DNA of 64,000 nt from Daedaleopsis sinensis (lineage: Eukaryota > Basidiomycota > Agaricomycetes > Polyporales > Polyporaceae). Every line of letters begins with the position of its first letter. Position 1 is the stretch's first letter. Below the pieces are notes generated by a model. The model saw nothing but the letters and a program-made list of their open reading frames with translations. It did no database searches and was not told the origin of the DNA. The stretch lies in NCBI GenBank assembly GCA_033807695.1, contig CM066305.1, positions 992,001 to 1,056,000 on the forward strand, given 5' to 3'. This document shows, piece after piece, positions 58,267 to 63,645 of this stretch. Made by a program: the position numbers and the translations under genes.

Positions 58267-61200
58267 ATGTCCCACCTCACTGCGCCGATGCCCCCTCAGG
58301 CCGGGCACCATTTGCCCCAGAGGCCCTATCTATTCGACTTTCCCCGACCCGCCCACCCGCTCACTCCCCCGGACACGGACTACGAGACGCTATCCCACCA
58401 GGCGCCGCCTGCGCAGAATGCTATTGGATTGGAGGCGGATCCCCTGCCTCCTCAGGCGCACCCGTCAATGCTTGACTCTCCCTATGCCACCCCGTACAAC
58501 ACCCTCCACAGGAAACGGTCTTCCGTGACCTATGTTAACTCGGGTATCCGTGAGGCAAGGGATCGAGTTGTGCACCGAGGTCTCAAGTGGTTGGTGGTTG
58601 TCACTCCGCCTATCTCGATGACCAGGGAGCATGGGCACCTCGGTCACACCTTATCGTCTGGTCCCTCTCGCAGGTTGTCCAGTGGGATCCTCCTGCCGCT
58701 TTATCCGACGGTGAGCACCTCCCACCGCCCCTTCCGGCGACTGTCCAAGCTCATTGCACCGCGTTCAATCACAGCTCAACAGTCAGCTGGGCGCTATTGC
58801 GCGTGAATTCAGTTTCCCCAGCATCTCAGGGTTGTGTGTCTATCTCCACACGACACACAGCGGCGTTGCCATGTCCCCACGCGTCTCAGAGGATACATGG
58901 CCCCTGCTCTGGAGCCACCTCTTCGATGCCCGCTCCCCGTCGCTCCCAGCTGCCCAGTTGCCTATCAGCGGTCAAATTGAGTTCGACATCGACTTGGCAC
59001 GAGCCCGCTGGTATGAGTCTTGGGTCGCGTCGTCACGTCGAGACTATGTCGATGTCCCGCAGTCTGTCGCCCCGTCACGCCCGCAGTCGCTCTCCCATTG
59101 GCGTGCCGACAGCCAAGGCTCCCTCAATGACCCTGTTGACGACCAGACGGATGTCATTTCTCTTGCACCACAGACCGCGACAAGGGCTACAGGACGTAAC
59201 ATCAAGAAGCTGTCTCTCCTGGACCGCTTCGATGCGGTGTCAGTACGTTCCGGGTCGAAGCTGGTACCCAGAGACGAGTCTCCGCCTAGTCAATCTGCGA
59301 AACAGAGCATTGTGCTCCAGGCGCTCTCTCCCATCGTTCAGGAAGACGAACCAGCGACAGCGAAAGACATTGACCGCCGTGTCCAGTCGTGGCGCATGAG
59401 TGCGACCGCGGCAGCGCGGAGCCCGCTTGCTGCAACCGGACAGACTAGTCTGGATCCTGTGAATATGCCCAACATGATCGAGGACCTTCCCACTGCAAGC
59501 TCGGCCGTGTTCGAACTCAATTTGGATGACTATGCTTGGTCGGTGTCTTCCGTGGGTCCCCCAGACTACGACATGGAGTCTATCGCATCGTGGGACCGCG
59601 TGCCTTCCGTTCACTTGGACAGACGTGGTGAAGGCTCGGTGTGCCTGACGGAATCCGTTTGCACGTCCTTCGGACCAGATGATGACTATGAACCGTTCTC
59701 TCCGGTCTCATACATGTCCCGGCTCCCGTCCCCTGATCTCGCATGGCGCATGTACGAGGACGTACCGCCGACGCCTACAACAGCGACCAGCTGGGGTGCT
59801 CCACTCTCCTTCCCCCCATCTCCCGCTGCCTTCTCCTACGCTCCCTCGGTCGACATCGCTGGCCGGTATCTGGACAGTCGTCCAGTCACTCCGACGACTG
59901 CCACCTCGTGGGGTGCCCCGCTCTCGTACCCTCCCTCTCCTGTCATGTTGTCGCGGCCAGCTTCTCCAGACATTGCGTGGCGCACTGCCGACAGCGCGCC
60001 GAACTCGCCGCGGTTCCGTCGTGCTGGCCAACCGTACGACTTGTACAACGCGGCGCAAGCCTCGACCTGGCACCACGTGTGGCCCTACAACCAGCACCAG
60101 GCTGAGCGTATGAGCTCTTTCGTCTTCCCTCCAGTTGCACGGCAGGTCAAGACACGCGAAGCCCCCAGCGTGCAGCTCGGTTACCCGGTTCTGGACATCT
60201 ACCCCGCGGTCTATCCCTCGTTTGACATCTATCCTGCTCTGTTGACTCTTGACGATCGCAAGCTCGGGGCGCCTGCAGTGAGCCGTGGTGCACCCTACCC
60301 GATTTTTGATCTTTGTGAGTGTGATACTTATACTCTGCATGCGCTTCGTTCCATGGCTCATACAGTTTTTGTGCGCAGACCCGGCCGTCTATCCTTCGCT
60401 TAATGTCTACCCTGCTGCTCTGACCGTTGCTCGTCCCGCGTCCAAGGAAATATCGACCCGTCTTCTTACATCGTATCCCAACATAGAGATATGTGAGTGG
60501 TCGCGTACATCGCTGGCTCGACCCACTGACTCAACATCACGCTGTCATAGACCCTAGTATCTATCCGTACTTGACGATCTACCCTGCTGTCACAAAGGAT
60601 ACGCGCAATATTGCGACCACAAATGTTGTAGGCACCATCTCGGCTACGGCTATTACTGTGCATCTGGCTCCTAGCTATCCTGTCTTCAACATCTGTGAGG
60701 CCGTTGTCTCCATAGTCTTTCCATCCTGATACTGATATGCTGTATCGCAGACCCTGCTGTGTATCCCTATTCACTGGAAAACATCTACCCGGCAACTACA
60801 GACACGCAGAAGGTGAAGACCATTGAGGTTCGCCTGCAAGCATCCTACCCGGTGATCGAGATTTGTAAGCAGCAGGTCATAGTAACAGGTGGGGATGGAT
60901 GGCTAACAGCATCCCAGATCCTTCGGTGTATCCTTTCAGCTTGGACACGATCTACCCCTCGGTCGTCGCGAAAAACGTCCTATCGGCTCCTACCAGGGCG
61001 ATTTCGGTCAACGTGGTATGGCAGTATCCAGTGTTCGACATATGTAAGCTCTCGGTTCACACCACGTCACTATACATATTGACGGTGCCCTAGATCCCGC
61101 TCCTTCTGAACGCATGTCCCGTGTGTCCCCGCCGGTCTCGCGCGAGGTCGTGGTCGGCCTGCCCAAGGCATACCCCATCCTTGACATCTGTGAGTCAACC

Positions 61201-63645: not shown

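What the first reader, a model, noticed from the sequence alone, without database searches (positions are those of the whole stretch)
60315..62322. A protein assembled from serially duplicated phase-1 YP exons
Eleven consecutive exons each open with the Tyr-Pro-x-V-Tyr-Pro module. Introns of about 50-65 nt always split the first Tyr codon after T (T|AC or T|AT). All internal exons are symmetric 1-1, so each can be copied, lost or skipped without shifting the frame. This is serial exon duplication in a fungus, where intron-bounded repeat arrays of this regularity are uncommon. I know of no named domain with the consensus YP-x-V-YP-x-x-L-x-x-I-YP-A. Repeat number and isoforms could vary between strains.
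Basis: partly seen in the sequence, partly recalled or inferred. Interest (0 to 1): 0.88.

Follow-up and report, generated by a model that had tools for sequence, protein, structure and literature searches.

The report
Mushroom gene built from repeated exons
A mushroom-forming fungus carries a gene for a large unnamed protein that has grown by copying one small exon over and over, a way of building genes best known from animals, and relatives among mushroom-forming fungi show signs of the same exon-by-exon design.

Summary
A 14-exon gene (58267-63645, 1,555 aa) contains 11 phase-1 introns (47-64 nt), each splitting a Tyr codon after T. Corrections: 8 of 11 exons open with exact YPxVYP, exon 7 lost the module, exons 11 and 13 are long, and one further unit, in exon 2, has no intron. 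The protein belongs to an unnamed family seen in many Agaricomycetes, without Pfam match (window protein). The repeat is a YP tetrad, YPxΦxΦ-YPxV-YPxΦxΦ-YP; the intron sits at its second Tyr. Relatives show the same site and phase: 75 of 93 ORFs that reach a unit run from YPxΦxΦ into Cys, 62 as CK or CE, as a T|GTRAG donor would read; 13 read-throughs lie at the second Tyr, none at the other three. Serial exon duplication is supported by intron sequence copied with its exon, one extra 40-residue unit relative to Daedaleopsis nitida, and no introns at the near-identical fourth Tyr. Short YP spacings are even 3,406 times, odd 89 times, suggesting a β-like strand. Function is inferred only: a cytosolic multivalent scaffold.

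The parts
58267..58710 (+). exon 1 (start codon; N-terminal region)
   Evidence: consensus of 40 relatives begins MSxLTxxPFHK
58711..58774 (+). intron 1, phase 0
   Evidence: D. nitida P0001 matches at 67% over the whole region searched, residues 80-1150
58775..60314 (+). exon 2: rest of N-terminal domain, T(A/S)TSWG repeats, WPY motif, and the first YP unit, which has no intron at its second Tyr
60315..60378 (+). YP intron 1, phase 1 (T|AC)
   Evidence: an exon end at this codon position is read in 75 of 93 relatives' ORFs that reach a unit
60379..60492 (+). exon 3, YP unit, class 1-1
   Evidence: an unnamed relative P0125 shows a similar unit flanked by both introns
60493..60550 (+). YP intron 2, phase 1
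   Evidence: T. coccinea P0007 model reads through an intron at this junction
60551..60694 (+). exon 4, YP unit, class 1-1
60695..60750 (+). YP intron 3, phase 1
60751..60864 (+). exon 5, YP unit, class 1-1
60865..60917 (+). YP intron 4, phase 1
60918..61043 (+). exon 6, YP unit, class 1-1
61044..61093 (+). YP intron 5, phase 1
61094..61189 (+). exon 7, degenerate unit (YPAPSE; 3rd and 4th YP lost), class 1-1
   Evidence: same degenerate unit in D. nitida
61190..61236 (+). YP intron 6, phase 1
61237..61356 (+). exon 8, YP unit (WSVYEI type)
   Evidence: dN/dS to exon 9 about 0.26
61357..61408 (+). YP intron 7, phase 1
   Evidence: 76% identical to the next intron
61409..61528 (+). exon 9, YP unit (WSLYEI type)
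61529..61583 (+). YP intron 8, phase 1, copied together with its exon
61584..61703 (+). exon 10, sister copy of exon 9 (89% DNA identity); D. nitida has one unit where the window has exons 9 and 10
61704..61756 (+). YP intron 9, phase 1; its first 25 bases resemble intron 61357-61408 by eye
   Evidence: 64% overall, within the shuffle range
61757..62053 (+). exon 11, YP unit plus long insert with KRGLPPVPPLPKN, shared with several Polyporaceae relatives
62054..62105 (+). YP intron 10, phase 1
62106..62228 (+). exon 12, YP unit, class 1-1
62229..62278 (+). YP intron 11, phase 1
62279..63424 (+). exon 13, last YP unit, two H-x-x-L-H/R-x-x-V motifs, proline-rich tail
63425..63481 (+). last intron, phase 1
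   Evidence: D. nitida ends with nearly the same exon-14 peptide
63482..63645 (+). exon 14 and stop codon; C-terminus VSKLDRSRYPFA

Best explanation
This is a real, apparently single-copy gene of an unnamed Agaricomycete protein family, and its YP array grew by tandem duplication of one class 1-1 exon with its intron. Shown: the exon structure in DNA, the homologous repeat, and copying of intron with exon in the newest duplicate. Shown indirectly: the same intron site in relatives. Inferred: recombination between introns inserts or removes whole exons; because the introns cut the tetrad at its second Tyr in phase 1, joining of any two YP exons restores a tetrad in frame, so unit number can change freely. 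Inferred from sequence alone: the tetrad is an extended, β-like two-faced strand (Tyr and often Asp/Asn/Glu on one face, Pro and Phe/Ile/Leu/Val on the other), separated from the next by a flexible linker. The whole protein (N-terminal domain shared with a second gene, Ser/Thr-Pro-rich middle, YP array, proline-rich SH3-ligand-like tail) works as a cytosolic multivalent scaffold whose valency is set by exon number. My confidence in gene structure and duplication is about 0.93; in the β-like tetrad about 0.6; in the scaffold function about 0.35.
For: Gene model and phases. The 10 complete units shared with D. nitida have equal lengths except one of 99 versus 98, and the window has one extra 40-residue unit; best hits to D. 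nitida are in order in 11 of 11 steps. Introns 61357 and 61529 are 76% identical against 54 +/- 4% for shuffled pairs. Relatives: 75 of 93 ORFs that reach YPxΦxΦ continue into Cys, 62 of those 75 as CK or CE (GTAAG/GTGAG), 2 continue into Tyr. Read-throughs that begin with C and end with D: 13 at Tyr2 and 0 at Tyr1, Tyr3 and Tyr4 in all 295 relatives held; implied introns 48-57 nt. Five ORFs from unnamed DNA show two consecutive introns around one unit. Tyr2 carries an intron in 10 of 11 strict tetrads, Tyr4 in 0 of 11, despite near-identical context. dN/dS 0.23-0.26 between exons 8, 9 and 10. Short YP spacings: 3,406 even, 89 odd, even > odd in 121 of 121 proteins; long spacings 645 even, 697 odd. 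Distant paralog of the N-terminal domain in the same genome (E 0.014 and 0.031 by single sequence, hhalign probability 99%), without a YP array.
Against: No RNA data for this genome. Genomic DNA of relatives was not available, so intron position there is read from ORF ends and read-throughs of proteins whose way of prediction I do not know. 13 of the 93 ORFs continue into Thr, 2 into Tyr and 3 otherwise; 27 of the 120 have no YPxΦxΦ at all. Some relatives carry several units in one open stretch (P0249, P0216), so introns can be lost, or those contigs are cDNA. Apart from 61357/61529 no pair of introns stands clearly above the shuffles. Whether the extra unit was gained in the window's lineage or lost in D. 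nitida's is open: exon 9 is as close to the D. nitida unit as to exon 10 (35 of 40 residues each). No experimental data on function.
Confidence: 0.8

Rival explanations
1. The YP repeat was contiguous first, and introns were later inserted independently at the same motif in each unit (sequence-targeted intron gain).
For: Units share a similar TTCGACATC|TACCC site; most introns of the array are not detectably similar.
Against: Tyr4 has nearly the same local sequence yet no intron (0 of 11); read-throughs occur only at Tyr2 (13 versus 0, 0, 0); introns 61357 and 61529 are copies of one another.
Confidence: 0.05
2. The YP units are short docking motifs (YxxΦ for AP-complex mu subunits, or YPx(n)L for ALIX/PalA) in a disordered tail, so the array concentrates trafficking or ESCRT adaptors rather than folding.
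For: 34 YPxΦ matches in the repeat region against 2.3 in shuffles; proline-rich SH3-ligand-like stretches nearby (sequence). YPxL/I as a PalA ligand is recalled; papers on it were seen only as a search listing.
Against: Only 10 YPx[LI] in the repeat region, though that exceeds shuffles (1.1); the family consensus at +3 is F or V more often than L. Even spacing of YPs within a tetrad is not needed for independent motifs. No membrane segment in the window protein by hydropathy (highest 19-residue mean 1.26), so no cargo of its own.
Confidence: 0.25
3. A structural protein: YP tetrads of different molecules pack together (amyloid-like or cross-β) to make an assembly such as a septum-associated body or coat.
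For: Alternating tetrads repeated up to 17 times; the named relatives that I recognise in the listings are Agaricomycetes.
Against: No signal peptide-like N-terminus in the window protein by hydropathy, so probably not a wall protein; Pro recurring on one edge would block that edge of a strand (reasoning, no test).
Confidence: 0.2
4. The introns are artefacts and the units are read otherwise (pseudogene or misread frame).
For: No transcript for this genome was available.
Against: One open frame across 13 junctions, 67% identity to D. nitida across the region searched, purifying selection between duplicated exons; 8 of 8 relatives in the first listing that come only from non-NCBI sources have 5-12 seamless Tyr2 junctions and no intron remnant (at least one of them lacks its N-terminus).
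Confidence: 0.02

Closest known systems
Class 1-1 module duplication and shuffling of animal genes (Patthy; PMC8001218, passages seen)
   Same: Symmetrical 1-1 exons, one per repeat unit, duplicated in tandem; a lineage with complex multicellularity; possibly β-type units.
   Different: Fungal; within one gene, no spread to other genes shown; the intron lies inside the module at a conserved Tyr, not at a domain boundary or Gly codon; no sign of secretion. That paper asks why exon shuffling is restricted to Metazoa.
Titin-like intracellular repeat proteins built of 1-1 modules (named in a passage of PMC8001218)
   Same: Intracellular, long, serial 1-1 units.
   Different: Units of about 40 aa, not Ig/FnIII; no Pfam match in the window protein.
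YPxL/I ligands of ALIX/PalA and YxxΦ sorting signals (recalled)
   Same: Tyr, and a bulky hydrophobic residue at +3.
   Different: Arrayed in spaced tetrads, mostly F or V at +3; binding untested.
Distant paralog in the same genome, L008:2056-4251
   Same: Part of the N-terminal domain (119 aligned columns, PTLxxQLxAIAxEYxLPST..PRISxExW), hhalign probability 99%.
   Different: 731-aa ORF without a YP array.

Membership tests
Serial duplication of class 1-1 exons | Repeat units flanked by introns of the same phase | tested here: met
   Exons 3-13 all 1-1
Serial duplication of class 1-1 exons | Intron at the same place in each unit | tested here: met
   11 of 12 units at Tyr2 (10 of 11 strict tetrads, plus the degenerate exon-7 junction); the unit at the end of exon 2 has none
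Serial duplication of class 1-1 exons | Intron and exon copied together | tested here: met
   Shown for exons 9/10; not detectable for the other copies
Serial duplication of class 1-1 exons | Intron site conserved in relatives | tested here: met
   indirect (ORF ends and read-throughs)
Exon shuffling between genes | The same module in unrelated genes | tested here: inconclusive
   Own genome: matches only at this locus with two YP queries (counts are lower bounds). Two Suillus models P0243 and P0246 join YP units to other sequence, but the join lies inside an exon-equivalent, so model error or rearrangement
Any named Pfam or NCBIfam family | Profile match | tested here: not met
   0 Pfam hits at E<=1 for the window protein; of 6 relatives scanned, 2 had weak hits below the curated cut-off; 0 NCBIfam hits in 3 relatives, window protein not run
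Known structure | Sequence match to a PDB chain | tested here: not met
   0 hits at E<=10 with profiles A1 and A2
ALIX/PalA ligand | LYPx(n)L core | tested here: inconclusive
   YPx[LI] 10 and YPx1-3L 14 in the repeat region, above shuffles, but F/V are commoner at +3 in the family
ALIX/PalA ligand | Binding to the V domain | not testable with these tools
   -
Secreted wall protein | Signal peptide | tested here: not met
   Hydropathy only: best 11-residue mean near the N-terminus is -0.09; no dedicated predictor run

The most novel reading that the evidence does not exclude
Early in the mushroom-forming fungi an intracellular scaffold arose by serial duplication of a class 1-1 exon, independently of animals. 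Each exon adds one new kind of repeat, a two-faced YP strand with parity-locked spacing, and because the phase-1 intron cuts the strand at a fixed Tyr, recombination between introns tunes valency without breaking the unit.
Probability: 0.4. Interest if true: 0.8.

Novelty: new variant of a known kind. Interest (0 to 1): 0.6.

Why it matters
It is a conserved protein family of mushroom-forming fungi for which I found no name, domain or function, and a clear fungal case of serial class 1-1 exon duplication, a mode discussed in the literature as an animal speciality (PMC8001218, passages seen). With unit number differing between congeners and pairs of units 90-100% identical inside single proteins of several species, it lets one watch exon duplication in progress and ask what selects for repeat number in a multicellular fungus.

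Tried and rejected
Collections for related loci: one scan of genome contigs and one of viral contigs with exon 2 gave no relative; both hold prokaryotic or viral DNA. Literature: ten searches; no title or abstract in the listings treats this family, and the peptide strings YPAVYP, IYPAVY, YPAIYP and YPSVYP occur in 0 papers. The library lacks most subscription journals. Of papers opened, only passages were seen: PMC8001218, PMC6547436, PMC2740785. Rfam on 57500-64000: nothing. Similarity among the 11 introns: only the 61357/61529 pair stands clearly above shuffles; 60493/60695 reach 67%, the shuffle maximum. Intron insertion targeted by sequence was considered and rejected. 'Salivary gland secretion 1', the name of the Moniliophthora relative, is in my judgement a low-complexity artefact of annotation. 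The listings show the best 120 of 250, the best 120 of 196 and all 64 hits, and only candidates sharing most words were scored, so absence outside Agaricomycetes is not shown.

Full report
WHAT IS THERE. Eleven introns of 47-64 nt lie in the array; every one has T before GT and A(C/T) after AG and interrupts a Tyr codon in phase 1. Exons 3-13 are all symmetrical 1-1. None of the 11 introns has a length divisible by three, so keeping any one of them shifts the frame; 5 of 11 also hold an in-frame stop.

THE REPEAT. Within the protein the distances between starts of successive YP pairs run 6, 4, 6 or 8, then a linker of about 20-30 (once 81), over and over. The unit is therefore a tetrad, YPxΦxΦ-YPxV-YPxΦxΦ-YP, with a variant in which the last spacing is 8 (YPWSLYEIYP). 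The intron falls at the second Tyr, so an exon carries the last three YP pairs of one tetrad and the first pair of the next; joining any two such exons rebuilds a tetrad. The family profile holds 587 tetrads with last spacing 6, 173 with 8 and 18 with 7; in the 587, the five alternating positions are Phe, Leu, Ile, Val, Met, Ala or Pro in about 93-98%. Across 121 proteins short YP spacings (3-14) are even 3,406 times and odd 89 times, with even exceeding odd in 121 of 121 proteins; long spacings (15-40) show no such preference (645 even, 697 odd). Even spacing puts the Tyr on one face and the Pro and aliphatic residues on the other of an extended strand. These copies share descent, so the counts are not independent, but the change from 6 to 8 with 7 rare suggests selection for parity.

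THE FAMILY. A protein search found 250 relatives at E <= 0.001; the 120 listed are 'hypothetical protein', similar labels or nameless, apart from one 'salivary gland secretion 1'; the named ones that I recognise are Agaricomycetes. Searching the array alone, which excludes the longest relatives by length, gave 64 hits, including Ceratobasidium, Tulasnella and Clavulina. Three species were checked in the taxonomy, all Agaricomycetes: Daedaleopsis nitida (Polyporaceae), Tulasnella calospora and Sphaerobolus stellatus. The window protein has no Pfam match; relatives gave none above cut-off in Pfam (6 scanned), none in NCBIfam (3 scanned) and none in PDB by profile. The nearest relative is D. nitida at 67% over the region searched. 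Other conserved parts are an N-terminal domain, T-A/S-T-S-W-G repeats, W-P-Y motifs, H-x-x-L-H-x-x-V motifs and, in many but not all relatives, a C-terminal VSKLDRSKYPF. In the window's genome two YP queries match only this locus (the tool gives lower bounds), but there is a distant second copy of the N-terminal domain in a 731-aa ORF without a YP array: E 0.014 and 0.031 for two matches in one ORF, confirmed by profile comparison over 119 columns (probability 99%, E 2e-18). Inference: the array was added to one copy of an older gene.

IS IT SERIAL EXON DUPLICATION? Four results say yes. (1) Exons 8, 9 and 10 are 77-89% identical in DNA, and the introns before exons 9 and 10 are 76% identical against 54 +/- 4% (max 67%) for 300 shuffled pairs. 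The first 25 or so bases of the next intron also resemble the first of them by eye, as expected if breakpoints lay inside introns, but over its length it scores 64%, within the shuffle range. (2) Against D. nitida the complete unit lengths are 38, 38, 48, 38, 42, 32, 40, 40, then one extra 40 in the window, then 99 versus 98, and 41; best hits are in order in 11 of 11 steps. Exon 9 equals the D. nitida unit in 35 of 40 residues, exon 10 in 31, and exons 9 and 10 equal each other in 35, so the copying is about as old as the split and a loss in D. nitida is not excluded. In the 14 other close relatives compared, 9-11 of 11 steps are in order, so the array is old and partly rearranged. (3) The fourth Tyr of the tetrad has nearly the same DNA context as the second, but introns are at the second in 10 of 11 strict tetrads and at the first, third and fourth in 0 of 11 each. 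(4) Seven other species hold pairs of units 90-100% identical within one protein (five Mycena, one Crassisporium, one Hymenopellis), so duplication or homogenisation continues. dN/dS among exons 8, 9 and 10 is 0.23-0.26 by a simple Nei-Gojobori count: the copies are kept.

INTRONS IN RELATIVES, without their DNA. The second search listed 120 proteins of 416-798 aa, most of them nameless and from contigs of unnamed sources. 27 have no YPxΦxΦ; of the 93 that do, 75 run from the last one straight into Cys (tail median 12 residues, longest 122), 13 continue into Thr, 2 into Tyr, 3 otherwise. After the Cys come Lys (31) or Glu (31) in 62 of 75, what T|GTAAG and T|GTGAG donors would read; Cys is 1.1% of residues in these proteins. 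Of the 45 others, 26 have a C-K or C-E after I, L, V, T or A in their last 60 residues, which may be the same junction in a diverged unit. In all 295 relatives held, read-throughs that begin with C and end with D number 13 at Tyr2 and 0 at Tyr1, Tyr3 and Tyr4 (first seen as 5, 0, 0, 0 in P0001-P0120), with implied introns of 48-57 nt. Six of the 13 are in named species: Trametes coccinea, Amylocystis lapponica, Favolaschia claudopus, Amylostereum chailletii, Guyanagaster necrorhizus and Hericium alpestre; by recollection these span Polyporales, Agaricales and Russulales. Five unnamed ORFs show two consecutive introns around one unit; in P0125 that unit resembles window exon 3. In the first listing, 8 of 8 relatives that come only from non-NCBI sources have 5-12 seamless junctions and no intron remnant, as spliced transcripts would, though how those ORFs were called is unknown to me. 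Against: some ORFs (P0249, P0216) run through several units before an intron, so introns have been lost in places or the contig is cDNA.

WHAT IT DOES. I found nothing in print. There is no signal peptide-like start and no membrane segment in the window protein by hydropathy; 15 of 120 relatives exceed 1.6 on the same crude scan. YPxΦ is strongly enriched, which fits YxxΦ or ALIX/PalA-type ligands, but the commoner F and V at +3 and the parity rule fit a structured strand better. I favour a cytosolic multivalent scaffold whose valency is set by exon number (0.35), with docking-motif array (0.25) and self-assembling structural protein (0.2) as rivals. Structure prediction would have helped to separate them but was not available.

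NOVELTY. Serial exon duplication is known; a fungal, apparently intracellular, widely conserved class 1-1 case with a new repeat is, as far as the listings of ten searches of this library show, undescribed. Patthy (PMC8001218, passages seen) asks why exon shuffling is restricted to Metazoa; another paper reports exon-domain boundary agreement also in some fungi (PMC6547436, passages seen). The case here is duplication within one gene, not shuffling between genes, so it touches that question without settling it. New variant of a known kind.

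Noticed in passing
L008:2056-4251 (own genome, contig C1): A second gene with a distant copy of the N-terminal domain and no YP array; Pfam gives nothing above cut-off and PDB nothing by sequence.
   Followed up: partly
P0243 and P0246 (Suillus): Annotated proteins that join what looks like an RNA-helicase piece (my recollection) to YP units, with the join inside an exon-equivalent; P0243 also carries PF03171. Fusion or model error.
   Followed up: no
window about 59770-60010: A second, intronless repeat in exon 2 around T-x-T-A-T-S-W-G-A-P-L-S, 2 copies here and 0-5 in 120 relatives.
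   Followed up: partly
window 35861-43812 (+): TRA1 gene, Pfam Tra1_central, Tra1_ring and FAT.
   Followed up: no
window 28654-30039 (-): WH2-motif protein, verprolin-like by recollection.
   Followed up: no
window about 56000-57697 (-): Divergent upstream neighbour that looks like a COP9 signalosome subunit by recollection; Pfam on the first ORF only gave nothing.
   Followed up: no
P0135, P0180, P0190 and others of P0121-P0240 (Russula-like): Relatives with tandem repeats of the kind TWTFVWPLYxAEN, several ending in xACK or xTCE: perhaps another repeat expanding next to the same intron site.
   Followed up: no
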